From a virus: a stretch of DNA of 39,334 nt. Both the position numbers and the translations under genes were made by a program. This document shows positions 78-26,000 of this stretch, in pieces. The DNA lies in the IMG/VR virus record IMGVR_UViG_3300042888_001544, positions 1 to 39,334 of that record; one strand, 5' to 3'. Under the pieces are notes generated by a model. That model was not told the origin of the DNA and made no database searches. It saw only the letters and a list, made by a program, of their open reading frames with translations. The stretch's first letter is position 1; every line of letters starts with the position of its first letter.

Positions 78-1988
78 ATGCGCTTAAACGGCCAACAAAA
101 CGTAATAGATTACAAGGCTTTAGCAAAGCGCTCCGGTCTGACACGCAAGTACAGTGTGAAGGTCGGAATACTTGGTACGCATTCTACAATTGGTCAAGGA
201 GCGCAGGCCATCGGTTCGGCAGCCATTCCGGGCAACCTGAGCCCTCTACGAAGCCCTATCAGGTCTGGTGCGTGGGGTGCCCTAACTCCCGGAAAACCAA
301 GAATCCCTGGCGGTACTGGTGGAGCAAATCGTGCTAGTCGTTGCCCAGAGGGGTATCAATACGGCGGTCGTTTTACCGACTCGCGTTTTTCCACATGTGG
401 CGCAAAACTGTTTGACATACCTTCTGCTATTGGTGTGGCAATCGGAGCACTAAGAAGAATAGCCCGTGGCGCTAGAGCAATTGCAGGACAGTCAACCCCA
501 ATCACTGGCGAGACTCCACAAGATTCAATAGTTGATTCAAGACGTCCCCAGATTCCGAGAGTCGGAAACCCCAACCCAGTAGCACGCGCGGCTGCAGCAA
601 AAAACATTGTCTCTCAAATCGGGCAGTCTGATGCGGCTGTCGTAAGAATGGTCAGAAAAGACGGGTTTGCGTTAGAACCAGTAGTTCCAGCACAGGTACT
701 AAGAGCGATTCCAGACAACAGAGACATGGAAGGCGCTGATTACATATTGTCAGTTCAGGGCCTTCCTCAACTAGGCGGAGAAGAACTTGGACTCCTCTCA
801 AATACTGGGGTAACAAAACTTACGTACGTTCTTCCAGGAGGCTCAACGCTGTCCCTTGAAAAGAAGAGACAACTAACTGTTGGTGAAAGAAGAAAACTTG
901 GACGCACGGTTAATGCTGCGTCAAAAATTGACATTACCAATGACCCAACTGCACGATTAAAAGAAGTGGTTGCTCAAACTGGTGACGGAATAGGTTATTC
1001 AGAAAATTTCATAAATGTAAAAAACCCCAATGAAGTTGTTTCCGCAGGTGGGAAATCACTCCCACGATGGGCTGATGAATTGTTTGGTAAGGGCAGAAAA
1101 GCGAAGCCACTAGCCAATGCAGAAAGAGCAACAGACTCAAATAGCGCCGTAGGAAAAAACATAACAAGCGTTGACGCTGCAGTTGACCAAATAATGTCTG
1201 GAAGACCACTTTCGGAAATTGACCCAATGATTTTACAGCAAGCACTTACAAAGGCAAACGTATTCAAGAGACAAAAATTGGACCAAAGAAGAGAATTGCT
1301 TGAAACGCCTAATGGCAATAAGTACATGCTCTATTCCTCGTCTGGAAAATATGAGCACCTTGGTCAAAAACTTGCAAGCGATATCCAGCAGCATCTTGGT
1401 CTTGAGTCGCCAGACGTTTTCTTTGTCGGTGAAGGAGATAAGAGAAAATACATAGTTGAGGATGCCTCTTCTCTAATTAGAGGATTTCAGGTTGACCGCA
1501 GGCGCAAATTCTCTGACTACAAACCAGAAGATGTGGCAAAAATGCTTGTATCCGACTGGCTCACAGACCAGAGAGACAGAGACCCTGGTTCTATAGTTCC
1601 AGTTTCAAATGGAACAGACACGAAACCGGTTGTTACCAATAACTTCACTTCCGGACTTGCGGACCTTGATGAAGTGTCAATTGTTGAGCGTCAAAAACTG
1701 ACCTTCTCTCAATTCATGGATGTAAAAAGAACTGAAACATACTCACAGTATTTTCAAAACCTGCAGCAACAGCAAAGATTTGCCTTCAGAAGAGAGATTG
1801 ACGCTCTACTATTAAGAGCAAGACAATTTAACTTTACACAATTCAAAAATCGCCTTTACAGTGATGGTCGCTTAACTGATGCTGAAAAAGCCCACCTAAA
1901 TATTATTGGGCGTATTTTAGAAACAAGAATTCAAAACTACGCAGGTAGTAGGGAAAATTTAATGGAAATCCTCGGAGTCAAAAAATGA
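78..1988 (+). CDS. Large head-module protein with two-Cys motif and possible degenerate kinase-like region
   Basis: 636 residues from the ATG at 78. The frame is open to the left edge, so the true start may lie further upstream. The N-terminal 90 residues are Gly/Pro/Arg-rich and low in complexity. Next comes a two-cysteine segment (C89 to C107, with GYQYGG and a C-terminal CG) that resembles short Cys modules in two neighbouring proteins. Residues about 405-560 look weakly like a HipA/phosphoinositide-kinase fold: a strand with KYMLY, a helix with ASDIQQHLGL, and a catalytic-loop-like DQRDRDPGS at 497-505. That resemblance is my inference and no standard kinase motif is complete. The stop overlaps the next start by 4 bases (ATGA), so the two are translationally coupled. 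Position just before the capsid genes suggests a virion or head-assembly role. Arg is mostly AGA, unlike the capsid gene. Confidence 0.7.
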   Translation: MRLNGQQNVIDYKALAKRSGLTRKYSVKVGILGTHSTIGQGAQAIGSAAIPGNLSPLRSPIRSGAWGALTPGKPRIPGGTGGANRASRCPEGYQYGGRFTDSRFSTCGAKLFDIPSAIGVAIGALRRIARGARAIAGQSTPITGETPQDSIVDSRRPQIPRVGNPNPVARAAAAKNIVSQIGQSDAAVVRMVRKDGFALEPVVPAQVLRAIPDNRDMEGADYILSVQGLPQLGGEELGLLSNTGVTKLTYVLPGGSTLSLEKKRQLTVGERRKLGRTVNAASKIDITNDPTARLKEVVAQTGDGIGYSENFINVKNPNEVVSAGGKSLPRWADELFGKGRKAKPLANAERATDSNSAVGKNITSVDAAVDQIMSGRPLSEIDPMILQQALTKANVFKRQKLDQRRELLETPNGNKYMLYSSSGKYEHLGQKLASDIQQHLGLESPDVFFVGEGDKRKYIVEDASSLIRGFQVDRRRKFSDYKPEDVAKMLVSDWLTDQRDRDPGSIVPVSNGTDTKPVVTNNFTSGLADLDEVSIVERQKLTFSQFMDVKRTETYSQYFQNLQQQQRFAFRREIDALLLRARQFNFTQFKNRLYSDGRLTDAEKAHLNIIGRILETRIQNYAGSRENLMEILGVKK

Positions 1989-4900
1989 AAAAAGTATCTA
2001 CCCTATTTGATGCGTTGCGTAATGAAAAGTTTGCTATTGCTGTTCAGGACGACTATGGAGTTAAATACTACGGCTCTGAAGGTCAAGCAAGAGAATGGGC
2101 GGACTGGGCAAACTCTTTTAATACCAAGACACTTGACACAAATAATCTTCCAGCAGGAATTATTCAGGGTCCATATAAAAACGTTAGTGAGCATTCTCTC
2201 AAGTCCTTACTGAATGCTTTTGGTAACAACGTTACGGAAATTAACAACTCTTTCACCGACTCTAAGGCGTACTCATATAAAAGTTCCATGAAGATGGATA
2301 ATGGCGCTCGCGTTCCAGCAGTAATGGACACACCAATTGGGCACTTTACTAAATCCCAATACGCAAGCGCAGTAAATTACAAAGGTCTAGTTATTCGTAC
2401 TCAAATCAAAGAAGGAAGTTTTCTTTTTGAGGCAAAAGTAAATAATTATGCATTTAACTTTGAAAACTGGATGTACAACTCAACTCCTTCAAAAGCGGAG
2501 ATTAAATCCCTTCGCAACAGAATTGATACAAACGTAGGTCGTTCTTCGGAAAGACGTTTAGGAATGAAACTGAAGGCCGCCCTCGTTGAAAGAGACGGAC
2601 GCTACAGAATTGGGTATGCACAAACCCTAGAAACCAAGTCGCTTGAAGATTCTCTTGAGGTAAAAGGAATTGGCGAAAGAATAGGCGGAGGAGCACGCAT
2701 CGGAAGAAGAGCGGCTCGTAGTATGGCCATGTTTGACCCAAAGGCTTGGGACGGCGATGGTGACGGCGTAGTTCAAGAAGGTACTCCTTTTGAGAGACCA
2801 GCAATTCCTGGAGTCAACGACAAAACAACTGGTGGAGTTGTTGATGCAGATGCTGCAAAAAAGGCATGGAAAGAATCTCAGAAGACTCCAGGCAGTTCAA
2901 CGCCTTCAAGAGAGTCAAGCCCTAGACGCAGGGTTTCCAACGCAGCAGGCTCAGCAGATAGACAAGTTTTTACTACTCGCACGCCAGCCGCAGCAGGTCG
3001 CAAAATACCTGACTCAAAGCCGATAAGTAGAAGCGGTCTAGCGTCACGAACACAGGCTGATATTGATAAAGAAGTATCAAAGCAAGTCACAGACACGGCA
3101 AAAGAAGTTCTTACCAAGAAATCAACGTCCACCGATTTACGTTCACTGATTAGTGGCCTCGGTCCTGACGGAGCAACAGAACTAAGCAGAGACCAGCAAG
3201 ACAGAATTAACGACATTATTGATGCGTTTGATAATGACGAATATGAAAATAATGAAGATTTTATTTCGGAAATTGCAAATGTTTTGCAAAAAAAGATTCC
3301 CGTAAATCAAAAACCAAAACAAACAGGCATGCGTTCACGTGTTGGTAAAGCACAAATGGATAGACAGGTTCAGGGTCTTGCGTCACGTAGTGGTCGTTCA
3401 AAAACAAAATCAAAACTTAAAGCAACACCAGGCCGTGATGCTGTTGACGAAAAAGATGGTTCCCTTTGGGCTTCACTTACTCCGGAACAACAGGATGTTG
3501 TAAAGAAAAACACACAAGCAGCGTACGACGGACTTCAGACATACATCAAGAAAGATAAATACCTAAGCACGTGGTGGAATGACTTTTTGAGTCTTAATCG
3601 CAAAAAGAAAGCAACTGACGCAGACGGAAAACCCTGGTCCGACCAGTCAAGAATTTCTGGAGAAGCATTTACTTCTTTTGAAGTTGCGTTAAACGGTGCT
3701 CTTTCTGGTGAAAATTCAGACATAGCGTCTGCAGAGTCTGGTCTTGCAGCAATGAGGGCCACTCTGTCCGATGCTGAAATCAAAAAAGCAGAAAATAGAA
3801 TTGCAGCACAGAAAAAAAGAGTTGAAAGACTTCAAAAAGTCTTAGACGACCTTAGAACTTATGACCAAATGGATAAATCTGACGACTGGTCGCTTCTTGA
3901 GCACCTTCACCCAGAACAAAGAAAAAAGTCTTTTGGTCTTGGACTTAGCAAGAGTGAAGCCGACATGACGGTAAGTCCTTTTGCTGATGGAAAACTTCCA
4001 AAGGGAATGAAGGTTGGGGAGCCATCAACCATCTTTGAAGAAGTTGGTGGAATGAAGAGAGCCGCTCCACGACTCATCGGAGAAAAAGGTGACGCAAAAC
4101 TTGAAGACCTTGCAAACAGAATTCTTCGCCCGAATCCGCAAAGAGCAGCACGTCGCGCTGTTAGAAAACAGAAAAAGGCTGGTCGTTCAGGTTTCAGAAT
4201 TGAACAAGAAGACAAACCTGATATTACAAGCAAGATTAAAAAAAGAATTAAAAAAGCCAAACGAGCAGTCAAAAGAACCTTTGGAAAACAAAGAAACGAA
4301 TCAAAAATTCTTAACGGAATCAGAAGAGAACAAACTGTTAGAATTTTTGAAAGAGACCCAGATGGAAAAATTGTTATTGGAAAAGAAACAATTCAACTAC
4401 TTGACGAAGTCGTTAATAAGGCACGCCAGAATAACGGTCGTGGAGAATTCAAGGGTCAAGCAGACGCAAACATGCTCCTTGGTTTCTTGTGGGAAAACAA
4501 TGGCTTCAACAGACAGCCAGCCCGCTTATCGGAAGATGAAGCAATGGCTTTGATTGATGCTGGATGGCACCCAATCAAGAGAGGCGTTTCTGCTGAAGAA
4601 TATGCGGATGAATATTTAACAGAATCTCGCAGAAGAATTACTGGTTCCAACGGAGAAATGGAAGGACCTGGAGAATACTGGTCAAATGCTGTTTCAACAA
4701 ACTGGGATGACCCAAGATATTGGGGTAAACCGACCGAAAGCAATGGATTGTTTGGATTTCTAAGTCCTGATTATAGGGTTGCTTCAAGAGTTGATAGAGA
4801 ACGTATGGCTTCGGAATATCAAAAGTTTGCACAAGCATTTGAAAATGTAATTTCTGTAATGCCCAAAGGCGAAGCAGAAAAAATGGAACCCGCAGATTTC

Positions 4901-5272
4901 ATGAGAGAACTACGTACCGCTCTTTCAAGGAACGTTGCAGACGGCGACCCAGTATGGGATGGCGAAGTTGGACAAATGTGGTCTTCGTTGATGAGTGCTT
5001 ACGAATCATCCAGTGGACCAGAAAAAACACAACTATGGAATGTAATTAATTTTATGTCTACTCAACTTACAAGACAAACAAGATGGGAAAACTATGTTCC
5101 TTTAATTTTAGGCTACGATGGCATTGATACCGGAGACAACACAGTAAGAACTGGTGGAACGGCCGCTGGAAAACAAGTCCTTATTTTCAATAGACAGGGC
5201 CTTGCTGTTCTTGACACGCCAATAAGCATTAAGGGAATTAATGACATTCTTAAGGAAGCAGATAAAAAATGA
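1985..5272 (+). CDS. Large structural-type protein with EF-hand-like tag and coiled coil
   Basis: 1095 residues, function not recognised. The N-terminal 240 residues are globular with no known motif. Residues 250-272 hold the tag FDPKAWDGDGDGVVQ plus EGTPFERP, a Ca-loop-like Asp array (D256, D258, D260) that recurs in two other large proteins here. Residues about 275-480 are Ser/Thr/Arg-rich and disordered-looking, with two GLASR motifs (351-355 and 464-468). A coiled coil lies near 595-630 and a strongly basic Lys/Arg helix near 748-770. The C-terminal 300 residues are folded-looking, with Trp-rich segments. ATGA overlaps join it to both neighbours. Size, charge and context fit a minor head or internal virion protein. 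It could also be a delivered effector whose enzymatic part I cannot identify. Confidence 0.75.
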   Translation: MKKVSTLFDALRNEKFAIAVQDDYGVKYYGSEGQAREWADWANSFNTKTLDTNNLPAGIIQGPYKNVSEHSLKSLLNAFGNNVTEINNSFTDSKAYSYKSSMKMDNGARVPAVMDTPIGHFTKSQYASAVNYKGLVIRTQIKEGSFLFEAKVNNYAFNFENWMYNSTPSKAEIKSLRNRIDTNVGRSSERRLGMKLKAALVERDGRYRIGYAQTLETKSLEDSLEVKGIGERIGGGARIGRRAARSMAMFDPKAWDGDGDGVVQEGTPFERPAIPGVNDKTTGGVVDADAAKKAWKESQKTPGSSTPSRESSPRRRVSNAAGSADRQVFTTRTPAAAGRKIPDSKPISRSGLASRTQADIDKEVSKQVTDTAKEVLTKKSTSTDLRSLISGLGPDGATELSRDQQDRINDIIDAFDNDEYENNEDFISEIANVLQKKIPVNQKPKQTGMRSRVGKAQMDRQVQGLASRSGRSKTKSKLKATPGRDAVDEKDGSLWASLTPEQQDVVKKNTQAAYDGLQTYIKKDKYLSTWWNDFLSLNRKKKATDADGKPWSDQSRISGEAFTSFEVALNGALSGENSDIASAESGLAAMRATLSDAEIKKAENRIAAQKKRVERLQKVLDDLRTYDQMDKSDDWSLLEHLHPEQRKKSFGLGLSKSEADMTVSPFADGKLPKGMKVGEPSTIFEEVGGMKRAAPRLIGEKGDAKLEDLANRILRPNPQRAARRAVRKQKKAGRSGFRIEQEDKPDITSKIKKRIKKAKRAVKRTFGKQRNESKILNGIRREQTVRIFERDPDGKIVIGKETIQLLDEVVNKARQNNGRGEFKGQADANMLLGFLWENNGFNRQPARLSEDEAMALIDAGWHPIKRGVSAEEYADEYLTESRRRITGSNGEMEGPGEYWSNAVSTNWDDPRYWGKPTESNGLFGFLSPDYRVASRVDRERMASEYQKFAQAFENVISVMPKGEAEKMEPADFMRELRTALSRNVADGDPVWDGEVGQMWSSLMSAYESSSGPEKTQLWNVINFMSTQLTRQTRWENYVPLILGYDGIDTGDNTVRTGGTAAGKQVLIFNRQGLAVLDTPISIKGINDILKEADKK

Positions 5273-5598
5273 GTGACAAAGATACGTTTCATGAAAAACA
5301 CTTGGAGTATTCAAAACTAACAAAATACCCTCCCTTTACAATTAGTTTGAAAAAGGCTCGCGAATTTGGGAATGACTTTTTAAAAGAAGAAGACAGGATT
5401 TTTTCTGAAGTTGATTCCGGTAACGAAGATGCATGGGCTCGCGCATTTTCAACAATGGAAGTAAAATGGGATGACGATATTGAGGAAGCACGTCTTTACC
5501 AAAAACGATACGGTGACAATATTCTTGAGGCAAGAAAAGCAGCAATGAAATTAAACAACCTAACCGAAGACGACAAAGACGTTCCTCTGTTTATTTAA
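5269..5598 (+). CDS. Small acidic head-module protein, unknown function
   Basis: 109 residues, starting in a 4-base ATGA overlap with the gene before it and ending two bases before the next ATG. It is rich in Asp, Glu and Lys and predicted mostly helical. There is no Cys pair, membrane segment or recognisable catalytic motif. Placement between two very large proteins and tight coupling suggest a stoichiometric partner or chaperone of one of them; that is inference. Confidence 0.7.
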   Translation: MSDKDTFHEKHLEYSKLTKYPPFTISLKKAREFGNDFLKEEDRIFSEVDSGNEDAWARAFSTMEVKWDDDIEEARLYQKRYGDNILEARKAAMKLNNLTEDDKDVPLFI

Positions 5599-5600
5599 TT

Positions 5601-7976
5601 ATGGAAGATTCGCTTGTTGGTAAAATTGCTGCCGTTAGGCAAGCAGCGGACATGGGCTGCTTCGGCGCGCATCAAATTTCAAATGGCGATTGGCTTCCAT
5701 GCTCATCAACTAAACAGTTTTTGACAATTATGAACGGATTTGATGTCAAGTCAAGAATTTCTCTTGACGAGATGGAGAACTGGTCTTCAATAAGAAAGTC
5801 AAAAGGCAAAAAACGCAAGAAGCGTTGGGAAAAACTTCGCGAGAGAAGAATTCTAGGAATTGAATCACTTGACAACGGTGGTCTTGTTTCTCCAAGAAAT
5901 TCAATGAATATGGTTAATGGTGGCACTAACCCCCCAATAACTTATGGTGCTTCAAATCCTTCAAGCATGTCTACGAAGAGCATTCAGCCAGCATTCATGC
6001 CCAGAGACAATGACCCTGACGTATTTGTGGACATTGAATCAGCAAGAAAAAGAGCACAACAACTTGGATGCATCGGTATAAGTAGAAGAATGTCAAAAGG
6101 CGGCAAAACCGTATGGATGCCATGTACCAACATTACCGACTACAACAATTTGACAGGAATGACTGCTCTTGGAAGAAATAATCTTCAGAAAAGAAATGAA
6201 AAAATAGTCAGAACCGTTATAAAAGAAAATCTTAAAAAGAAAAAAACAACGATTCAAGAAGATATATACGGCAAGGCTCTTGGCCCAAGAATACGAGGCA
6301 TAGCCCGTGCGGCAATGTCTAGATTTGACCCTGATGCTTTTGACGGAGACGAAGATGGAATTATCCAGGACGGAACAGCGTTTGAAAGACCCAACACTCC
6401 GAATGCTCGCATCCCCAAGACTGTAGATAGGGAAGTTTCTCCCTCCGAAGTTTCGGCAGTACGCAAGTGGATGAGTGCCATGACTTCTTCAGATATGGAT
6501 TCCTTCCGAGGCGAACCGATTGAAGCATACGATGGTGTTCCTGGTTCAAGACGTGGCTTGGCATCTAGTGGGCCCGGTTTCATTATTGACCCCAAGGGTC
6601 CAAAACAAATGGGCGGAAGAATGGCACCAAAGCCATTGGCCATAACAGAACTAAGAAACCCAGAAGCCAGTCCGACCAATCCGTTTAGAAATCTTGGTGG
6701 AAGATTGATGAGCAAATTGATTAGAGGAATGGTAAAGCCCGAACACAGACGTAAGCAAGAGAGAACAACCTATCTAATTGGAGGCAATACTGGTTCCGGA
6801 AAAACCACCGTACTTGACGAACACTTAATACCAAAAGGATTGGTTCCTTCACACGAAGAGGCTGCCCTTATTGACCCAGACTTTATTAAGAAAGGTCTTG
6901 TTGGATATGACGATGGACAAGGCGCTGGTCGTGTTCACAGAGAGTCTCAAGCATCAACCGACAAGACAATCAGGGATGCCGTTTTGGACGAACTGGACAT
7001 GGTAATTACGGGTTCTGGGGCATCAAGACAAATCCAACACATGCGTGAAGCGTCTGAGCGTGGTGAAAAAGTAGTGGGCCACTGGGTTCATGTTCCGCAA
7101 CGAGAAGCATCTAGACGCATTAAGAAGAGAGTGGATGAGACCAACAGGTATATACCTGACAACACCGCCCACATGGCACAAAGCATTCCTAAGGTTATTT
7201 CAACAGGCTTTGAAGAAGACTTACTAGACGAGTTCTATTTATGGGACAACGATGTTCCAGCAGGTTCACCACCAAAACTAATTGCAAAAAAATCCAAAGG
7301 AAAAGATTTTGAGATATTTGACCAGTCAAAATTTGAAGAATTTGCTGGAAGTAAAAAATGGGCAGACACGTGGGTGGAAACGTCAGAAGACAGAGACGTG
7401 TCAAGAAAAGGTTTTGAGTCCTCAAGTTACACAGGCAAAGAAGCCGCAGTTGCTTTAAGAGAGTCTGGTTTTGAAGTAATCATTGACAAAAATATAGAAG
7501 TTCGTCTTCCTGCAGGAAGTGATGCAGAAAAATTCTTTATAGAACGAGTTCTACCATATATGCCAAACAAATTTGGAAGAACGAACACACACGCGTCACG
7601 ACTTACCCTGCCAGGGATTCCAATTGTTGAAGACGTACAAAAGTTGCTCGGGGTGAGTATTGATAAAAGAAAAATTGTTGACAAAAACTATCGTAAAAAA
7701 TTTAAAATGCAACTCATGTCAAACGACCTAGAAGTTTTAGCAGAACTTTTTGCTAAAGCCCCTATTGTTGGTCCAAACGGCGAATCAAGGTTTGGCGATA
7801 TGTTGCTTACTAACGTTGGTGTTGAGTTTGATGAAACAGTAAAGCAAATTGCTAAAAAGGCTGGTTTTTTGGAAAAAGAAATTTCAATGTTGATAAGTGA
7901 AGGGTTCACGAAAGAAGATATTGAGAAAATGTCAAAAGAAGAAATACAAGAACTACTAGACGCGCTTCCGGAATGA
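5601..7976 (+). CDS. Virion-module protein with zeta-toxin-like P-loop kinase domain
   Basis: 791 residues. Two short two-Cys modules open the protein: C20/C34 (GCFGAH...WLPC) and C157/C175 (GCIGIS...WMPC). The shared tag FDPDAFDGDEDGIIQ is at 242-256, and a GLASS motif at 319-323. The enzyme-like part follows: Walker A GGNTGSGKT at 394-402, then LIDPDFIKKGL (D425, D427) in the place where zeta-family kinases bind the acceptor, then GAGRVHRESQ and VGHWVHVP, typical of the zeta/AAA kinase core. Zeta toxins phosphorylate UDP-N-acetylglucosamine; the substrate here is unknown. The C-terminal 250 residues are a separate domain I do not recognise. No epsilon-type antitoxin lies next to it. Immediate proximity to the capsid gene suggests packaging with the virion rather than plasmid-style addiction. 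The kinase fold is well supported, the toxin role is not. Confidence 0.75.
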   Translation: MEDSLVGKIAAVRQAADMGCFGAHQISNGDWLPCSSTKQFLTIMNGFDVKSRISLDEMENWSSIRKSKGKKRKKRWEKLRERRILGIESLDNGGLVSPRNSMNMVNGGTNPPITYGASNPSSMSTKSIQPAFMPRDNDPDVFVDIESARKRAQQLGCIGISRRMSKGGKTVWMPCTNITDYNNLTGMTALGRNNLQKRNEKIVRTVIKENLKKKKTTIQEDIYGKALGPRIRGIARAAMSRFDPDAFDGDEDGIIQDGTAFERPNTPNARIPKTVDREVSPSEVSAVRKWMSAMTSSDMDSFRGEPIEAYDGVPGSRRGLASSGPGFIIDPKGPKQMGGRMAPKPLAITELRNPEASPTNPFRNLGGRLMSKLIRGMVKPEHRRKQERTTYLIGGNTGSGKTTVLDEHLIPKGLVPSHEEAALIDPDFIKKGLVGYDDGQGAGRVHRESQASTDKTIRDAVLDELDMVITGSGASRQIQHMREASERGEKVVGHWVHVPQREASRRIKKRVDETNRYIPDNTAHMAQSIPKVISTGFEEDLLDEFYLWDNDVPAGSPPKLIAKKSKGKDFEIFDQSKFEEFAGSKKWADTWVETSEDRDVSRKGFESSSYTGKEAAVALRESGFEVIIDKNIEVRLPAGSDAEKFFIERVLPYMPNKFGRTNTHASRLTLPGIPIVEDVQKLLGVSIDKRKIVDKNYRKKFKMQLMSNDLEVLAELFAKAPIVGPNGESRFGDMLLTNVGVEFDETVKQIAKKAGFLEKEISMLISEGFTKEDIEKMSKEEIQELLDALPE

Positions 7977-8115: not shown

Positions 8116-9477
8116 ATGTCAGACCAAGCAAGACTTACAGAATTGCAATCAACCCTTCGTGCCAAGATGGCAGACAACAAGGCGATTGCAGACTCATTCC
8201 GTATTGAAGAAGGAACCGTTGTTGTCAACGCTCAGCAAAAGAGCGCATTTGACAAAAACATGACCGACATCAAGGAAATCAAGGGACTCATTGAGGGCCT
8301 TGAGGCAATGAACACAGTTGAATCATGGGGCTCACAAGCACCAGCAGAATCAGTTGCAGTTGCTGCAGCAGCAGGCTATTCATTGAAGGGCCTCGGCGCT
8401 TCATACTCAATCGGTGACTTGTTCCTCAACTCACCAGAGTTCAAGACCCTTTTGGGTGGTAAGAATGGCGCAAACATGCCTTCCCCATTCCAACTCGGAG
8501 CATCACTCACAACTCACGGCGCATACGGCGTTAAGGACGTTTACTCAGCACTTCCATCAGGCACACTAGCCCGTGGTGCATCTGCTGACTTCGGTTCAAT
8601 CCAGCGCGACCCAATGGTCATGTCACCACAGCGTGTAAAGCGTGTTCGTGACTTGTTCCCAAGCCGCACCACTTCAGCAGCAGTTATTGAATACTTCCGC
8701 ATGCTTGGTTTCACCGCAACAGGCGGCGGAACCAACAATGCAGGAGTTGTTGCTGAGCGTAACGCAGGAAACACCGCGTTTGCCGCTAAGCCACAGTCCT
8801 CAATGGTATTTGAAGGCCACCAGGCCCCAGTACGCACCATTGCTCACTGGGAAGCAGCACACCGTAACGTCCTTGCGGACGAGCCACAGTTGCGTTCAAT
8901 CATTGACAACGAATTGATGTACGGTCTCCGTCTTCAAGAAGATGCTCAAATCCTCAACGGTGATGGAACTGGCGAAAACCTTACTGGTGTTCTTCAGACT
9001 TCAGGTATCCAGAACTACTCATGGTCAAGCGGTTTGTACTCAGCAACCGCAGGAATGTCAGACACAAAGGCAGACGCAATCCGTCGCGCCGCTACACTGT
9101 CGTTCCTCGCTTACTACGAGCCATCTGGTGTCGTTCTTCACCCGAACGATTGGGAAGACATTGAGTTGACCAAGGATGGCAATGGCCAGTATCTCGTTGC
9201 AGTTTCGGTTGCAATGGGCGGCGAGCCAAAGGTATGGCGTTTGCCAGTCGTTGAGACCCCTGCAATTCCAGAAGGCACCGCACTTGTCGGCGCATTCGGT
9301 ACGGGCGCACAGTTGTACGACCGTGAGCAGGCTTCAATCCGCATCTCAGAGCAGCACTCGGACTTCTTCGTTCGCAACGCAATCGTTGTACTCGCAGAAC
9401 AGCGCCTCGCCCTTGCGGTTAAGCGCCCAGAGTCATTCGTCAAAGTTACATTTGACAACGCTCCAACAGCCGAATAA
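8116..9477 (+). CDS. Major capsid protein, HK97 fold
   Basis: 453 residues. The start is supported by AGGAG at 8102-8106. Residues 1-70 are helical and Gln/Lys/Glu-rich, like the delta/scaffold segment of HK97-type capsid precursors. The body shows typical family features: a long E-loop-like stretch with VAERNAG and FEGHQAPVRTIAHWE (residues about 212-245), the spine-helix segment RSIIDNELMYGLRLQEDAQIL with NGDGTGENLTGVL, and a C-terminal A-domain with VVLHPNDWEDIEL. No prohead protease is recognisable in the window. Codon use differs from neighbours: Arg is almost always CGT/CGC, against AGA in the genes before it, which fits very high expression. A strong terminator follows directly, so it can be expressed as a short, abundant transcript. 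Confidence 0.92.
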   Translation: MSDQARLTELQSTLRAKMADNKAIADSFRIEEGTVVVNAQQKSAFDKNMTDIKEIKGLIEGLEAMNTVESWGSQAPAESVAVAAAAGYSLKGLGASYSIGDLFLNSPEFKTLLGGKNGANMPSPFQLGASLTTHGAYGVKDVYSALPSGTLARGASADFGSIQRDPMVMSPQRVKRVRDLFPSRTTSAAVIEYFRMLGFTATGGGTNNAGVVAERNAGNTAFAAKPQSSMVFEGHQAPVRTIAHWEAAHRNVLADEPQLRSIIDNELMYGLRLQEDAQILNGDGTGENLTGVLQTSGIQNYSWSSGLYSATAGMSDTKADAIRRAATLSFLAYYEPSGVVLHPNDWEDIELTKDGNGQYLVAVSVAMGGEPKVWRLPVVETPAIPEGTALVGAFGTGAQLYDREQASIRISEQHSDFFVRNAIVVLAEQRLALAVKRPESFVKVTFDNAPTAE

Positions 9478-9547: not shown

Positions 9548-10096
9548 ATGAAGGAAAACGATGCGTTTAAATTTATTGGAGACATGCCATCTTTCAATGA
9601 ACTTCTCGGTGATGTCTCGTCCCTAACCCCAGAAGACTGGTTGAAATACGTGCAACGTAAAAAAATTGGCGGTGCAGCAGGGGGTAATACTGACACCATC
9701 CCATTGGTCTATGACGTGATGCAAAAACTCAACTCGGACGTAGTGCACGAACATTACAGACAATTTAGTAAGTATCTAGATGAAGTCGTTCTTGCCACGA
9801 TGGAAACAATTGGAGAAGTAAAAATTCAACAATCAATACTGGCAAGACTTAGGGCAAAAACAACTATTCCCAAACATAAAGATGTCGGAAATCCATTAAC
9901 CGCAAAAATCCATAGCCAGACTCACAGAATACACGTTCCAGTTATAACCAATGAAAATTGCATATTTACCATTGGTGATGAATCAAAGAACCTAAAGCCT
10001 GGCCAAATATGGATTGTAGACAACGTAGGAAGACACCATGGTGTCAAGAATAGTGGAGACGAAGACCGAGTGCACCTAATCATAGACGCCATCTGA
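9548..10096 (+). CDS. Aspartyl/asparaginyl beta-hydroxylase-like Fe(II)/2-oxoglutarate dioxygenase
   Basis: 182 residues. The C-terminal half matches the aspartyl/asparaginyl beta-hydroxylase family: HRIHVPVITN (candidate Fe ligand H129), GQIWIVDNVGRHHGVKNSG (candidate Fe ligand H163 or H164) and DRVHLIID, where R174 would bind 2-oxoglutarate. Spacing agrees with human AspH (H679, H725, R735). The N-terminal 100 residues are helical and unassigned. Such enzymes hydroxylate Asp, Asn or Pro side chains of proteins. Phage homologues occur but their targets are mostly unknown. It is the first gene after the capsid terminator and has its own terminator at 10139, so it is a single-gene unit. Capsid, virion effector or host protein are all possible substrates. 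Confidence 0.82.
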   Translation: MKENDAFKFIGDMPSFNELLGDVSSLTPEDWLKYVQRKKIGGAAGGNTDTIPLVYDVMQKLNSDVVHEHYRQFSKYLDEVVLATMETIGEVKIQQSILARLRAKTTIPKHKDVGNPLTAKIHSQTHRIHVPVITNENCIFTIGDESKNLKPGQIWIVDNVGRHHGVKNSGDEDRVHLIIDAI

Positions 10097-13253: not shown

Positions 13254-15299
13254 TTACCCCTGATTGTCCTTAATAAATTTTATTTCGCATGAATCCGTTG
13301 TGCAGTAAGACTCCCCGATTGCATCGGCAGCCATTCCTGCATATACGCCCGTGAAGTCAATAGGAAATAATGATTTACCTGCCTCTTCATATACGCTCTG
13401 CTCTATCTGTGTGTACGGCATTTGCGGATAGGTGAAGTTTCCTTGGGGCAAGAACGACACAGTTTTAAGTTGACCGTCATACATGTGGAGTACGGTGCCG
13501 ATGTGTTCTTTTTCTTTCTCTGCGTCAAAGGAAATCGTAACTGACACCGAGTTGTCCGACCAGTAGCGTTGTGCAACTGCTGCTAGTGACATCTTTTCAA
13601 AGATTGTTACGTCCTTTTCGGAGCGACGTGCGTCTGACTTGATTGGGAAGAACACTACGGATGTTGTATCTGGAGATTCCGAGGCAGGCTCAACTCTATA
13701 GTTGGCCATTCTGAACAATGGAAGCATTGGGTCTTCATTAGAGAATCTAATCGCTCTATCAAAATACTCACCGCCTGGAGTCCAATGAACACCAGGAGAT
13801 TCGCCGGCAAGGATAGAAACTGTTCCAGATGGTTTTACTGTTGTCATCTTGATTGACTCACGAATTCCGAGCCACTCCGAGTAAGAAACATCATAATTCT
13901 TTACCGTGTTGTACCCAGTGTCCATCCACTCACGAAGAACTGGCATTCCCACGCGGTCAGCGAAGTTAGCAACACCGGACATTGAAGTACCGATGCGACG
14001 ATTGCGTTGCATGATTGCGTTTGTCTCTTCCCAGTGGGTAGGAAGAAGCGTTACGGTCTTTGCGTAAAGATATGCAAACTTCAAGGTTCGCTTGTAATCA
14101 TCCAAAGAATCATGGCGATTGAGGTATGTCTCCACGAGAGTACAGCACTCATATGACTCAAGAGATTGTTCTGCACATGGGTTATATCCAGCAACACGCC
14201 AGTCTTTGTTGTTTGCAGGGTCTGCAAGACGACCGTATTTACGAGACATGTCAAGCCAGATAACTCCTGGCTCTCCATTGAGCGCAATTCCGTCAACAAT
14301 CTTAGAAAGGTCCTTGCCTACAGAGGTTTCAACGGAGTTGTTTGACATCCATCCCCAACCAAGTGATTCTGGGTCGTATGAGTTGCGCTCAGGAAATACT
14401 GATGAGTTTTTCAAGTTAAGAAATTCATCATCATCCAAACTACCAATCAGCAATTCTGCGGAGCGACGAACGTTTCCAGAAACAACACAAACACCAATCA
14501 TGTTTCCAATGTCTGCAATATCAACCTTTGTAATTAATTGACCATTGCGGTTTTCAAACATCTTTCTAATGTATTTATGCAGTCGTTCTAACGAAGCGTG
14601 ACCAGCAGCAGTACCACCAAATGTTTTGATAGGTGTTCCTGCAGGGCGAATTAGTGAATAATCAAAGATGATTGGTGACTGGTCTTGCTTTAAGTAAGAA
14701 TTAATCAACATGCTGACAGAAGAAACCCAGCCTTCTCGGCTGTCTTCAATGACTTCTGTAACTGGTGGCTTTGTTGGCTCATAGATAGTGAATTCTTTTT
14801 CTGCACCCTTGTTGTCAAAACCAACACCGACACCAAGCATTGATGCTTCCATAAGAAACGCAAAAGGCTTTGCAGGATTGTTCTTTGTCATTTCAGATGT
14901 TGATACAAATGCACAGTTCTGCAACGCAGCAGAGTTTTTCTGAACATTGACTAACGGAGTTCCCATAACCCACAAGCCACGACCAGGTGGAGTCCACTTC
15001 AGGTTAAACAAACGGTCAAACGCTTCTTTTGCAGATGCTTGTGCTTTGGAATCGTTCCAGGGTAGACGATTTGTTTTGCAGTGGTCTTTCTGCAGGGAGT
15101 ACATACCGTTGATTACGCGTTCACAAACATCTGACCATGTTTCTTTTGTTCCGTCTTCTTTTAAGCGCGAATAAGTACGCAAAAAAGTTATTTCTCCTAC
15201 AGAGTTACCGCCGGCATCAACATAACCAAATGGTGCTTTTTTTGTTCTGTAAGAACTAATAAAATCTTCTGATAGGCGGAATGTGAAAAATGAAGACAC
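13254..15299 (-). CDS. Class II (adenosylcobalamin-dependent) ribonucleotide reductase, monomeric RTPR type
   Basis: 681 residues from a GTG start with AGAGGAG 8-9 bases upstream. Key residues line up with Lactobacillus RTPR. C129 (LQNCAF) and C386 are the redox pair. C375 in NPCAEQ is the thiyl radical site, with E377 beside it. C666 and C671 (CTTDSC) are the C-terminal shuttle cysteines with the canonical four-residue gap. Distance C375 to C386 equals that of C408 to C419 in RTPR. The enzyme reduces ribonucleoside triphosphates to deoxy forms without oxygen or a second subunit, using host B12. No thioredoxin or thymidylate synthase is seen here. A TTGTAT-N17-TACAAA promoter precedes it. Phage use of class II enzymes is known in aquatic habitats. 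Confidence 0.93.
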   Translation of the reverse strand: MSSFFTFRLSEDFISSYRTKKAPFGYVDAGGNSVGEITFLRTYSRLKEDGTKETWSDVCERVINGMYSLQKDHCKTNRLPWNDSKAQASAKEAFDRLFNLKWTPPGRGLWVMGTPLVNVQKNSAALQNCAFVSTSEMTKNNPAKPFAFLMEASMLGVGVGFDNKGAEKEFTIYEPTKPPVTEVIEDSREGWVSSVSMLINSYLKQDQSPIIFDYSLIRPAGTPIKTFGGTAAGHASLERLHKYIRKMFENRNGQLITKVDIADIGNMIGVCVVSGNVRRSAELLIGSLDDDEFLNLKNSSVFPERNSYDPESLGWGWMSNNSVETSVGKDLSKIVDGIALNGEPGVIWLDMSRKYGRLADPANNKDWRVAGYNPCAEQSLESYECCTLVETYLNRHDSLDDYKRTLKFAYLYAKTVTLLPTHWEETNAIMQRNRRIGTSMSGVANFADRVGMPVLREWMDTGYNTVKNYDVSYSEWLGIRESIKMTTVKPSGTVSILAGESPGVHWTPGGEYFDRAIRFSNEDPMLPLFRMANYRVEPASESPDTTSVVFFPIKSDARRSEKDVTIFEKMSLAAVAQRYWSDNSVSVTISFDAEKEKEHIGTVLHMYDGQLKTVSFLPQGNFTYPQMPYTQIEQSVYEEAGKSLFPIDFTGVYAGMAADAIGESYCTTDSCEIKFIKDNQG

Positions 15300-20012: not shown

Positions 20013-23000
20013 GTGTTCTACAATGAATCAATGCCCTTCTCTTATGACATAGAACCAAACGACTCGTCTCGTCTAAGACGTCACATGTCAAGAGTAAAGA
20101 GTGATGACGCTCAAAGAATAGAAGTCAAAGCACTAGGCATGAACCTAGGTCAACTCGCAAGAGGCGCACAAGTCTTTGACCCTAACGCATACGATGGTGA
20201 TGGTGATGGACTAGTACAAGACAGCACACCCTTTGAAAGACCGGCGGTGTTGTCTAACATTGCCTCCATAGCAAGAGGTCTCTCAAGCACCACGGGTGGC
20301 TACGGGTCATACACACCAGCAGGTTCTTGGACAGTAGGCCTCACCAATGAAGAGGTGGCAGAGAGGGCAATACCTGACAACCCTGCTGTTTTCATTGGCA
20401 TGCTCAACGCTCAAGGCCCCATGGGTAGTACAGATGTGTACCTACTAGAGGCTCTCAACGATGTTATCTTTGACCCTGAGGGCGTTGCTAAAATACGTCA
20501 ATCACTAATTAAAACATTAGATGATAGACCTGCATTACGTTCTGCCTTTGACAGGTTTGGTTGTCCACCCATAGGTCTACACCCCAAGGGCAAGCCATAC
20601 AAAGGTCAAGCACATGGTCATTACGCTATCTTCATTAACGAAGCAGCCATAGATGAGGGCGCAGTATCACGCTGGCTAGGTAAAACACCGGCACTAGCAA
20701 AACTATTCAATGAATCCATGATAGCGCCCAAGATAAAGGGCGTGAAGCGAGCATTCTCAGGAGACAACGCAGAGGACACCATCACTCATGAGTGGGGTCA
20801 CTACTTGAACTACCTAGTAGCAAACATCGCACCAGACGCACAACTGCGTGAACTCGCAGCGGCAATGGCATCAGACTCGTGGGGTTATGCACAGTGGAGA
20901 AGAACAGCATTCACAGCGTTACCCAAAGGGGCAGAAAGATTATTCTCCTACTTTGGCGAGATTACAAGCAGTGAAAACTGGAACAAGAAACATGAACTGC
21001 CCGATGAGGATGTTCCGTTCATCAAGAGCGTGTATGGAACCACATCACCAGTTGAGTTCTTTGCCGAATCAGTGCAAGCATACTTCTCCCCCAACCCTAA
21101 AGATAGTGAACTTCTCAACTACGAAGGAACAGTGATTGTTGAGCAAATGCTTGGCATTAGACAAGTATCTCGTAGTGGATTTTCGTCACAAACAAGCGGT
21201 CTCAAAAGCAGTACGGGTAACTCCATGCGTGGTAAGACGCCACAAGAAATTGCAGACATTGTAGTACCTAAGACCAAAGAGGAAGCAATCGCATTAGCCG
21301 ACGCACATAACGCTTTGCTTGTTGACCCAGGTGGTACTCCATACACCGCATCAGAACCAAACACACTGAAGTTGATTACCCCCAAGGGCATTGACGGTAT
21401 GGACTTCTCACCAGAAGCAGTGTCTCGTATGAAAGAGATGATAGTAGAAGCATTATCAAACAACCCCAACTTCTATGAAGCAGTACAAAGATTCGGCATG
21501 CCACCTGTCATGACAACCAAACCAGGGGAAAGACTAGATGGCTCCTACGCTGTTGCGGGTGTAGAAGGTTTTCCTGCTATCACTATTGACTCTACTGTTA
21601 GGGAAGAAGCCCTAGTCAATGGGTTCCCTAATCGCATGTGGGAAGATGAACCATTCATCAAGGGAACATCACAATTCCTAATGGACCCCACGAGTGATGG
21701 GATGTTCGTTCATGAATGGGGTCATTATCTGAATCGTTTAGTGATGAACGTACACCCAGATGAAGACATGAAAGACTTAGCACGCTTTTGGTGGCTAGAT
21801 ACTTGGGACCTAGATGAATACATACCACGTATTTCAAAACTTCTACGCAGATTCATAAAGCCAGACGACAGAGTGTCAGGTAGATACTCTTACGCTCAGA
21901 GATTCGGTAAAGCAGTAAAAAATAATAAGTCAGTCAACTTCACGGGTTACCCCCATGTAAAGACTCAGTATGGGCAGTCACAACCATCAGAAGCGTTTGC
22001 CGAAGCAGTGACAGCAGTGCTCTCTAGCGACATAGACGAGAAGGATATGGTCAGTCCTGAACTACGCAAGGACGTTCTTGACATACTCGGTTTCTCGCCA
22101 TCAGCAAAAGAAGTAGATAGAGCGGGTAGTTCAGAAGGAAGAAGTGCTGGATTCGCCTCAAAGACAGTAACAAGAGGTCTTGGCGTAAGGCTTATTACCA
22201 AGTCCGACCCGTTCACTCCACTCAATGGTCCTGACTGGCTAAAAGATGCTACGGATGAAGAAATAGCAGAGGCTGTCGTACCTACAAACATGGATGACTC
22301 CATAGCGCTAACCGTGATGAACACGGCGTACGGTGCAGACCCAGCAAATTTTCCCACAGAAGCAACAGTAATTGCTGAACTAGCGGAAAGATTGCTATTC
22401 AAAGCAGAATGCACAGACAGTACGGGTGCCCTAATTCGTGATGCAAACGGAAACGCTGCTTTTGTGTTTGATGTACCGATTGACTTCACTCCAGCAGGTA
22501 GACAAAAAGCCAAAGACATGCTCAGACGAATGATGGCAGAATCACCAGAGTTTGCATGGATGATTAGACGCTTCGGGTGTCCACCGGTATTGATTATGGA
22601 TGAACAAAAACTTACCGACCTAAGAAACCAGGTTCAGGCGCTGCGTGATTCAGGAATGGACATACAGTTGCCTCCCCATCTTGATAGTGACTCTATTGGT
22701 GGTTTTTCAATAGCAACTCTTGGTATTACGCTTAGAACAAAACCAGGCAGAGATGACTTGCCGATGGGCTTCAATAGAGGGATAGCAGCGAGAAGAAGAA
22801 CGGGAAGAAAAATAACTAACCCAGACGGCACCATAGAGGACGAAACAGAACACTGGATGAACAACTTCGGTATTTCTCTTCCTGATGTCGGTATTCATGA
22901 ATGGGGTCACTGGTTTTATTCAACCGTTCTAGGAAACAAATTACTATACAAGACGTATGGAATTAGAGGAAAAATGGGAGACAGACAATCTCGTCTTTCG

Positions 23001-26000
23001 TACCTATTTCCTGGTGTTCCTACTGCGGACGTTGAAAAAATGACAAAAGAATTCCTTGATGCTTTTGACGCAGAGGGTTTTATTCCTTTCAACACCATGA
23101 GTGAAATGCATATTGACTCAATAGCCAAAGCGGCATACAGAAGCATAGGTAACAACTTAAGAAACAGACCACTACCAGAACAACTGGCTGCTGCTCAAAG
23201 GTTCACCGACTTAGTACAAGACTATTTAAATAACGTAGTTAACTCATCACGCGGGTGGTCTCCATCACGCGCACAAGAGTTTGCTGACCAAATAGCGCTT
23301 GAGTTTCCGTACCTAGTAAATGACATGCCTCCACTAATAGCGGGAACCTATGCAACAGCAACTCGTCAAGAACTGTGGGCAGAGGCAGTATTACTATTCT
23401 CTTCACCTGACTCAAAGTTGAAAGCCAAGTACCTAACGCCAGAGATAGAAGCGTTTATTGCTTACGCTTTTGGGTTGAAGCCAGACAGAGACCCCAATAC
23501 TCCATATCAAAAACCTTGGGCATCTCGCAGTGGCTTCTCTTCTTCTTCACGGGTAAGAAGACTTCATGCAGCAGAGGACAGTATTCCCGACAGAGTCTCT
23601 GACAAAGATGACGGGTTAGCAAGCAGAACTACTGGAGCATCAACTGCAAAGATGAGTCGTGAAGCCTCTAGTACTTCACGTTTCACTGTTGGTGACTACG
23701 ACTTTGACATAACCGACGAAGACCTATCTACATACGATTGGGATACCGCCTACGACCAGTGGACAACATGGTCGGGTAACTGGCGTATGCGTCACTTATC
23801 CTCAGCAATGATGGGTATAGAACAGCAACCAACCAAGGGTGGCGAAGAGTCATTATCAACCGTCCACGAGATAATGCGTTCGGGTGAACTGTCAAACGCA
23901 CCAGACCACGTCAAAGAATCGGTTCGTGAATCTCTAATCAACACTCACAAGACTATGGAAAAGATATCCATGGGTGAGACTATTAGTGATAGACCCCTCT
24001 ACAGAGGCTTGGGTTCTGTTCCTGACGATTCAGAGATACTCATGGCAGAACAAGGCGAGACGATAACATTCCCACTTAGTGCTTTCACTCCAGACAGAAG
24101 CCTTGCTACAACGTTTGCTGACATGAATGCCGAGAGTGACAAAAAAGTAATCCTCCAACTCAGAGATGGTGCCCATGTAGCATCTAGCGATTACACGACA
24201 CAAATAAGAGACCTAGAAAGCGACTGGATAGAAGTACCTATTGAATCTGTTACTCAGGGAGAATTTACTGTCGTCTCCAAGAGCGAGAAAGACGGGTACA
24301 CAGTAGTAGAACTGTCTCATGTAAATACGTTTGACCCATTAGCAGGAAGAATGATTCCCACAAACGCTCGTGAAGGTTTTGCTTCTTCCAGTATGAGGCC
24401 AGAGCGACGAGTGTCAGATAGTGCCATCCGTACGCTGACGGACAATATGGACTTCCTTCGTGACAATCCACCAATCGGCAAGGGTGGCAAAGACCTAGAT
24501 GACCAGTGGGCACAGAAGACAATAGAGAAACTACGCAGTGGGGAGATATCCCAAGAAGACGCATTTGACCTAATGAATGTCGTCATTGAGATACTCAACA
24601 ACGGGTTCAACGAAGACCCAAGCCAGAAAGAAAACCCAGACGGCAAACTTCTTGCTTACCAAAAACTATCCAAGCGTCTACGCAGGCTCGCTGTCGGCGC
24701 TATGGACAAAGACGATATGGAAGACTTCCGCAGAGAACAAGGCATTGGTCCTACTGCGATTACGGAACCAAAGCCAGGTCCTTATCCTGGTGGTCGTTTT
24801 GGCTTCTCATCTACGACAGCACGGGAAAATTTGTCTACACGGACAGACCAGCGCATTAGTGACATTGACACACAGGTGGCAGAACTTGAATCCGTCAATG
24901 CTCGCCTGACTAGAGCAATAAGTGAACTTGAAGCCACGGGTAACTGGGAAGGAGTTAAGCATGACGTGTTCATCACCGAAGGCAATGACCCAAAGACTTA
25001 CAGCAAGGAGCAGTTAGAGAGCAACGGCTGGTCTGAAATAGTAGTGCAAGACTCAAGAAATGCTATATCGGCAAGGCAGAGAAAGATAGATGTTCTCAAG
25101 AAAGATAGAGACAGTCTTGAAGATGACAAGAAACGCCTAACCGGTGACTATCCAGAAACAACAGTACTCATTGAGGAGTTGCTTCTTGACGAAGCCAATG
25201 TTGAGAAGGTCAAAGCAAGAGCACTAGAAGTCAGTTCAATGAGTGAAAACCAGAGAATGGAAAGATTCACAGACCCGAACGACCCAAATGCAATATATGT
25301 AGTCCACTACGGAGCAGCAAAACTAGAAGGCGGAGAACTTGACCCTGCTCGCTCACGAGGACAAGTTGGACAAGCAATTATGGGCAATACTCGTCAAATC
25401 AATGACGAAACGGCCAGATATATGGTCGGAAAGCGTGATGATGCCAAGCGGGACATATCCATCCTTGAAGACATGAAGCGTCAGATTGATTCTGATGGAG
25501 TTGTTGATTTTGACGCAATAAGAAAAGCCGACCTCAAGGACCCACAAAGAGTTGGAAGAGCAAGAATGCTGTTGGGTCTTAATCGCAGTGACCCAGAAAG
25601 TTCAACAATCACCCCTGAAGCACGACAGATTGCCAATATTGACGGCGCTATCGGAGACAAGAACATAGTGCTGTCCAGACTTGACAAAGTAGCGGACAAA
25701 TTGGTCGCAGACGACTATCAGTATTCCAGCACATACAGAGCATCATCGTTGCAAGACTTGTTCGGCTCGTATGGAGGAAGATACGCAGAGGGTGACGACA
25801 CAAAACGTTCATCAAACACGGGAATTCACATATTCAAAGTAAGAATTGGCGATGACGCAACCGAAGAAAACAACGTTGGTGAGACTCACCTTGTTGGTAA
25901 ACACACTCCGATTGCTTCTCTTGTTGTAGACAGTAATGCAAGTAGTGACAATCCTGGTCGTGAAATATGGAAGGGTTGGCTTGATTTGGTCATCCAACAG

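What the first reader, a model, noticed from the sequence alone, without database searches (positions are those of the whole stretch)
6780..7300. Zeta-toxin-like kinase encoded next to the capsid gene without an antitoxin
Gene 5601 has GGNTGSGKT and the DPDFIKKGL acceptor-site motif of zeta/AAA kinases, fused to the shared tag. Zeta toxins poison peptidoglycan synthesis by phosphorylating UDP-GlcNAc. In a virion-module protein, the enzyme could instead be delivered at entry or tune host wall synthesis.
Basis: partly seen in the sequence, partly recalled or inferred. Interest (0 to 1): 0.7.

Follow-up and report, generated by a model that had tools for sequence, protein, structure and literature searches.

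The report
Zeta-type kinase cargo beside phage capsid
A phage from an environmental DNA sample carries, in the gene just before its shell gene, a well-preserved enzyme of the zeta-toxin kinase kind that it probably packs into the particle and injects into bacteria, and which travels with a small partner gene that may keep the enzyme in check.

Summary
ORF 5601-7976 (791 aa) holds a zeta-toxin-fold kinase at aa 347-599 (Pfam Zeta_toxin 34.3 bits, cutoff 22.3). The AlphaFold model has pLDDT 91.7, and its closest solved structures are PezT and zeta (Z about 15.6). The Walker lysine, catalytic Asp and lid Arg are invariant in 31 of 31 diverse homologues; dN/dS is about 0.06.

Residues that bind UDP-GlcNAc in zeta toxins are remodelled, so the substrate is open.

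The gene is a cargo slot. Related phages keep a bare 207-245 aa DUF3721 protein directly before the capsid gene. Others, like the window, extend it with zeta or other modules (ArdC-N, polyvalent metallopeptidase, ParB-like, pentapeptide), giving proteins up to 3,273 aa. This is the architecture of 'polyvalent' injected phage proteins. A zeta relative in phage P-SS2 was found in virions by mass spectrometry.

'Without an antitoxin' was premature. A 109-aa helical gene (5269-5598) lies directly upstream in 28 of 29 distinct zeta loci tested by adjacency, and in none of 13 cargo-free loci. It may be an inhibitor or a chaperone; its fold matches no solved antitoxin.

Verdict: a new variant of a known kind. 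The companion gene is the testable novelty.

The parts
5601..7976 (+). DUF3721-tag-zeta kinase protein, 791 aa
   Evidence: ORF; Pfam; homologues
5628..5708 (+). first DUF3721 motif (aa 10-36), carrier region
   Evidence: Pfam PF12518 1.3e-11, two stretches
6054..6125 (+). second DUF3721-like motif (aa 152-175)
   Evidence: second Pfam stretch; pattern position
6324..6392 (+). shared tag FDPDAFDGDEDGIIQDGTAFERP (aa 242-264), between carrier and cargo; DxDxDG loop
6639..7397 (+). zeta-fold kinase domain (aa 347-599)
6780..6806 (+). Walker A GGNTGSGKT (K401 = zeta K46)
   Evidence: K in 31/31; alignment to 1gvn_B
6870..6899 (+). IDPDFIKKGL; D427 = catalytic base D67 of zeta
   Evidence: D425, D427, K430 31/31
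7128..7130 (+). R510 = lid arginine R158 of zeta
   Evidence: 31/31
7398..7973 (+). C-terminal extension (aa 600-791), variable between relatives (0 to about 2,300 aa)
5269..5598 (+). 109-aa companion gene P109, all-helical, candidate inhibitor or chaperone
8116..9477 (+). HK97-type major capsid protein
   Evidence: Pfam Phage_capsid 8.9e-44, phrog_10
1985..5272 (+). 1,095-aa neighbour bearing the same tag; cargo-free relatives have a short (166-247 aa) ORF in the same position

Best explanation
The gene encodes a minor head ('polyvalent') protein. A DUF3721 carrier region, encoded just before the capsid gene, is fused through an acidic DxDxDG tag to an enzymatically competent zeta-fold kinase. 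Likely working: the protein is made late, packed inside or on the head, and enters the next cell with the DNA, where the kinase uses ATP to phosphorylate a nucleotide-type small molecule. That molecule could be UDP-GlcNAc or a related UDP-sugar, slowing wall synthesis, or another nucleotide such as NAD or a defence signal. The 109-aa upstream gene most likely encodes a dedicated partner that holds the kinase inactive, or loads it, in the producing cell. Shown here: fold, catalytic residues, purifying selection, gene position, modular gain and loss, companion linkage. Inferred: packaging, injection, substrate, role of the companion.
For: Fold: AF2 pLDDT 91.7, VIA-align Z 15.8 PezT, 15.6 zeta, 15.5 UNAG-bound zeta. 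K401, D427, R510 invariant 31/31. dN/dS 0.058-0.075 against close relatives. Zeta ORFs lie directly upstream of the capsid gene wherever both are visible, in proteins of 534-3,273 aa. In 37 of 80 capsid relatives zeta is absent, and most of these keep a bare DUF3721 protein or one with other cargo there. At least 5 gains or losses on the capsid tree. Orthologous slots carry ArdC-N, MPTase-PolyVal, ParB-like, NUDIX, DnaJ and sigma-70 region 4 domains, as in polyvalent proteins (PMC5512222). The zeta+MuF protein ORF030 of P-SS2 was detected in virions with 96.5 peptides on average (PMC2784084; domains). P109 adjacent to zeta in 28/29 distinct loci and 0/13 cargo-free loci.
Against: No virion or injection data exist for this clade; P-SS2's zeta domain is only about 27% identical and sits on a MuF carrier. 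Zeta positions E116 and T128 are not conserved and R171 only in 12/31, so UDP-GlcNAc kinase activity is not established. In the tree-based test P109 follows zeta in 4 of 5 independent comparisons (p 0.125, underpowered); contigs of L014 and L138 have zeta without P109. P109 has no PDB match and is not epsilon-like by Foldseek.
Confidence: 0.55

Rival explanations
1. Classical UDP-GlcNAc kinase toxin: the domain phosphorylates UDP-GlcNAc (3'-OH) and inhibits MurA to weaken or stall the host wall at entry or late in infection, as the first reader and Iyer et al. suggest.
For: Best sequence and structure matches are zeta and PezT. T118 position is T/S in 25/31 and R120 position K/R in 26/31. The host is probably an actinobacterium with peptidoglycan: Rpf-like transglycosylase PF06737, capsid kin in Gordonia and Brevibacterium phages.
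Against: E116 (essential in zeta, PMC6356619) is T in the window and Q/T/D/M in the family; T128 (uracil contact) is H; E100 is D.
Confidence: 0.3
2. Kinase with another acceptor (NAD-like, as AvrRxo1; or a nucleotide or defence signal), i.e. a host-takeover or counter-defence enzyme.
For: ATP side and base kept, UNAG side remodelled, the pattern reported for AvrRxo1 (PMC5087710). AvrRxo1 and CthPnkp are the next structural matches, Z 13.7 and 13.4. Slot companions include anti-restriction domains; a viral zeta-fold match is annotated Acb1 anti-CBASS.
Against: Zeta/PezT still score highest in sequence and structure; no acceptor-specific motif of AvrRxo1 was tested.
Confidence: 0.4
3. The zeta domain is a structural or assembly module of the head (scaffold-like); catalysis is irrelevant.
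For: Position directly before the capsid gene, where cultured capsid relatives encode the prohead protease.
Against: Many close relatives lack it; catalytic residues invariant; an S78 protease is found elsewhere in all 11 contigs tested.
Confidence: 0.1
4. P109 and zeta are an ordinary toxin-antitoxin pair for plasmid-like maintenance, unrelated to the virion.
For: Small gene directly upstream, as in epsilon-zeta.
Against: Always inside the head operon, fused to a carrier also found without zeta; P109 has no epsilon-like fold hit.
Confidence: 0.05

Closest known systems
Zeta / PezT toxins (epsilon-zeta, PezAT; PF06414)
   Same: Fold, Walker A, catalytic Asp, lid Arg; small gene upstream
   Different: Fused in a large head-module protein; E116 and T128 equivalents changed; no epsilon/PezA homologue recognised; companion of different predicted fold
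Polyvalent proteins of phages (Iyer et al. 2017, PMC5512222), including zeta fused to MuF
   Same: Multidomain proteins in virion modules with swappable effector domains (zeta, ArdC-N, MPTase, ParB-like)
   Different: Carrier is DUF3721, not MuF or portal; linked 109-aa companion; shared acidic tag at the carrier/cargo border
P-SS2 ORF030 minor head protein (phrog_16619)
   Same: Zeta domain (about 27% identity to the window) in a head-region protein, detected in virions
   Different: MuF carrier; no DUF3721, no P109 homologue
MuF polymorphic toxins (Jamet et al. 2017, PMC5576092)
   Same: Short carrier-only versus long cargo-bearing forms; small ORF linked to cargo-bearing forms
   Different: No MuF domain; small ORF is upstream rather than downstream; temperate lifestyle not shown
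AvrRxo1 (NAD kinase effector)
   Same: Zeta-like fold; ATP side conserved, UNAG side not
   Different: Lower structural similarity; a secreted plant-pathogen effector

Membership tests
Zeta toxin kinase domain (PF06414) | profile match above curated cutoff | tested here: met
   34.3 bits vs 22.3; 31/31 homologues match
Zeta toxin kinase domain (PF06414) | zeta/PezT phosphotransferase fold | tested here: met
   Z 15.8 PezT, 15.6 zeta
Zeta toxin kinase domain (PF06414) | K46, D67, R158 equivalents | tested here: met
   K401, D427, R510, 31/31
Zeta/PezT UDP-GlcNAc kinase toxin | E116 (essential) and T128 (uracil contact) | tested here: not met
   T470 and H480 in the window; family Q/T and H
Zeta/PezT UDP-GlcNAc kinase toxin | R171 in the lid | tested here: inconclusive
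   R516 in the window but alignment has an indel; R in 12/31
Zeta/PezT UDP-GlcNAc kinase toxin | UNAG phosphorylation | not testable with these tools
   needs assay
Epsilon-zeta / PezAT toxin-antitoxin system | epsilon/PezA-type antitoxin encoded upstream | tested here: inconclusive
   linked upstream 109-aa helical protein, but no Foldseek match to any antitoxin
Phage polyvalent protein | several distinct domains in one polypeptide with swapping between orthologues | tested here: met
Phage polyvalent protein | encoded among virion genes | tested here: met
   139 bp before the capsid gene; same order across relatives
Phage polyvalent protein | packaged and injected | not testable with these tools
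   P-SS2 relative detected in virions (literature)
MuF toxin | MuF domain (PF04233) | tested here: not met
   absent in ORF 5601-7976; present in only 3/11 related contigs
AvrRxo1-type NAD kinase | curated NCBIfam model above cutoff | tested here: not met
   NF041405 20.7 bits vs 300; fold match Z 13.7

The most novel reading that the evidence does not exclude
The phage runs a packaged toxin-antitoxin pair: the virion carries a zeta-fold kinase whose dedicated, non-epsilon inhibitor (the 109-aa protein) stays behind in the producing cell, so the kinase is unleashed only in the next host, on an acceptor other than UDP-GlcNAc.
Probability: 0.2. Interest if true: 0.8.

Novelty: new variant of a known kind. 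Interest (0 to 1): 0.5.

Why it matters
Zeta kinases on phage head proteins were predicted in 2017, but I found no functional test in the papers searched. This clade gives natural experiments: otherwise similar phages with a bare carrier, with zeta, or with other cargo in one slot beside the capsid gene, plus a small companion gene that appears with the kinase. That makes two questions directly testable: whether a phage can inject a wall- or nucleotide-directed kinase, and whether it needs a built-in inhibitor to survive making it.

Tried and rejected
Other P-loop family (ABC, PilT, VirB11, Pnkp, adenylate kinase): lower scores than zeta in sequence and structure. Prohead protease in the slot: no S78 in the ORF, S78 found elsewhere in the same contigs. 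MuF carrier: no match. A reading of Table 2 of PMC2784084 that the P-SS2 zeta protein is the capsid protein (its authors' label): rejected, since Pfam finds MuF and zeta and no capsid domain. Known antitoxin for P109: no PDB fold match at E<=0.001. Defence-system match: none in PADLOC. Cellular genomes: one scan of genome contigs gave no relative; it used short patterns only, so cellular homologues are not excluded. Papers: DUF3721 is mentioned in none held; a hit for 'zeta' in an Arthrobacter phage paper was only a phage name.

Full report
OBSERVATION. The window is a 39 kb virus record, a fragment. ORF 5601-7976 encodes 791 aa with GGNTGSGKT at aa 394-402 and IDPDFIKKGL at aa 424-433, at the stated coordinates. 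Pfam finds two DUF3721 stretches (1.3e-11) and Zeta_toxin (2.1e-8, 34.3 bits against a cutoff of 22.3). The tag FDPDAFDGDEDGIIQDGTAFERP lies at aa 242-264 and recurs in ORF 1985-5272, with a third copy near the start of ORF 20013-26543. An HK97 capsid gene starts 139 bp downstream.

THE KINASE DOMAIN. From 18 close loci and 55 more distant ones I built a 31-member alignment (A3). All 31 match Zeta_toxin. A profile search of PDB sequences puts zeta toxin 1gvn_B first at E 3e-12, far ahead of anything else. The AlphaFold2 model has pLDDT 91.7. VIA-align gives Z 15.8 for PezT, 15.6 for zeta and 15.5 for UNAG-bound zeta, then AvrRxo1 13.7 and a bacterial polynucleotide kinase 13.4. The fold is therefore zeta-like and no other P-loop family fits better.

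CATALYTIC AND SUBSTRATE RESIDUES. Through the 1gvn_B alignment and residue roles from PMC3062530 and PMC6356619: K46 = K401, D67 = D427, R158 = R510, each 31/31; K70 = K430 31/31. T118 = S472 (T or S in 25/31), R120 = R476 (K or R in 26/31), E100 = D454 (D in 23/31). In contrast E116, essential for toxicity in zeta, is T470 here (Q16, T11, D3, M1), T128, the uracil contact, is H480 (H in 23/31), and R171 is R in only 12/31 (R516 in the window, with an indel nearby). The ATP side and catalytic base are kept while the acceptor side is partly remodelled, the pattern reported for the NAD kinase AvrRxo1 (PMC5087710). Purifying selection is strong: dN/dS 0.058-0.075 for zeta against L003, L004 and L006. 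I conclude that it is very likely an active kinase whose acceptor cannot be named from sequence.

A CARGO SLOT BESIDE THE CAPSID GENE. Where both are visible, the zeta ORF lies just upstream of the capsid gene, in proteins from 534 to 3,273 aa, with zeta at varying positions. Of 80 relatives found by the capsid protein alone, 43 have zeta and 37 do not. The zeta-free ones mostly keep a bare 207-245 aa DUF3721 protein directly before the capsid gene, or one carrying other cargo. Longer relatives add ArdC-N, MPTase-PolyVal and pentapeptide repeats, DUF5824, NUDIX, DnaJ and sigma-70 region 4, and anti-restriction and ParB-like domains. On a capsid tree of 58 distinct rows the zeta state changes at least 5 times, all forced by well-supported branches. 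This matches the polyvalent proteins of Iyer et al. (PMC5512222), who already list zeta kinases fused to MuF in phages and propose that they weaken the wall at injection. Here the carrier is DUF3721, not MuF.

VIRION EVIDENCE. The only annotated phage hit to the window protein is cyanophage P-SS2. Its 1,499-aa protein has MuF and zeta domains and was detected in purified virions with 96.5 peptides on average (PMC2784084 Table 2, ORF 030). That is direct support for a zeta-bearing head protein in particles, though in a distant relative; it does not show injection, nor whether the zeta part itself remains after any processing.

THE COMPANION GENE. A 109-aa gene ends 2 bp before the kinase ORF. 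Its family (P109) was searched independently, and every locus it returned has a zeta ORF immediately downstream. Among distinct loci with visible flanks, P109 lies directly before 28 of 29 zeta ORFs; in the 29th (L116) the frame is split and P109 precedes the DUF3721 half. It is absent in all 13 cargo-free loci and all 9 of the other class, which includes L138 (zeta on a neighbouring ORF). Five of those nine have an unrelated 86-119 aa ORF in that place. Whole-contig searches found neither P109 nor zeta in 23 zeta-free contigs, although the tool notes that empty answers on fragments prove little. The divergent giant clade also has a P109 relative at the head of the module. Exceptions with zeta but no P109: the contigs of L014 and L138. 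In phylogenetically independent comparisons P109 follows zeta in 4 of 5, never the opposite, p 0.125, too few to be significant. P109 is predicted all-helical at pLDDT 92.3 with no PDB match better than E 4.7. It is under strong constraint (dN/dS 0.067). It could be an inhibitor, a loading chaperone or a clade-specific head part.

HOST AND PHAGE. Capsid kin are Brevibacterium and Gordonia phages at about 48% identity, and the window has an Rpf-like transglycosylase domain, so an actinobacterial host with peptidoglycan is likely but not shown. Cultured capsid kin carry an S78 prohead protease in the slot; in this clade S78 lies elsewhere, in all 11 contigs tested.

VERDICT. A real zeta-fold kinase riding on a modular head protein: a new variant of polyvalent phage proteins. 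Confidence that it is an active kinase about 0.8, that it is in the virion about 0.75, that it is an injected effector about 0.55, that UDP-GlcNAc is the acceptor about 0.3, that P109 is an inhibitor about 0.35. These figures are my judgement, not computed.

Noticed in passing
window 1985-5272, 5601-7976, 20013-26543: Three large ORFs share an acidic DxDxDGxxQ(D/E)GTxFERP tag; in two of them it sits just after the N-terminal carrier region. It resembles a calcium-binding loop or could mark a processing site.
   Followed up: partly
window 78-1988: C-terminal part contains DWLTDQRDRDPGS, reminiscent (from memory) of kinase catalytic loops; no Pfam match.
   Followed up: no
L119 and L150 (giant ORFs before the capsid gene): Single polypeptides combining NUDIX, sigma-70 region 4, DnaJ and zeta domains.
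   Followed up: partly
G041:C1:32851-33291 (72 kb contig with a 100% identical copy of the window's kinase gene): S78 prohead protease domain inside a frame of about 2,179 aa, far from the capsid gene.
   Followed up: no
window 9548-10096: Aspartyl/asparaginyl beta-hydroxylase-like gene (PF05118, 1.5e-14) next to the capsid gene.
   Followed up: no
window 13254-15299: B12-dependent ribonucleotide reductase on the minus strand, close behind the head genes.
   Followed up: no
L121, L171, L157, L126, L120 upstream of the extended DUF3721 ORF: Zeta-free extended carriers have other small ORFs (86-119 aa) directly upstream, possibly different cargo partners.
   Followed up: partly
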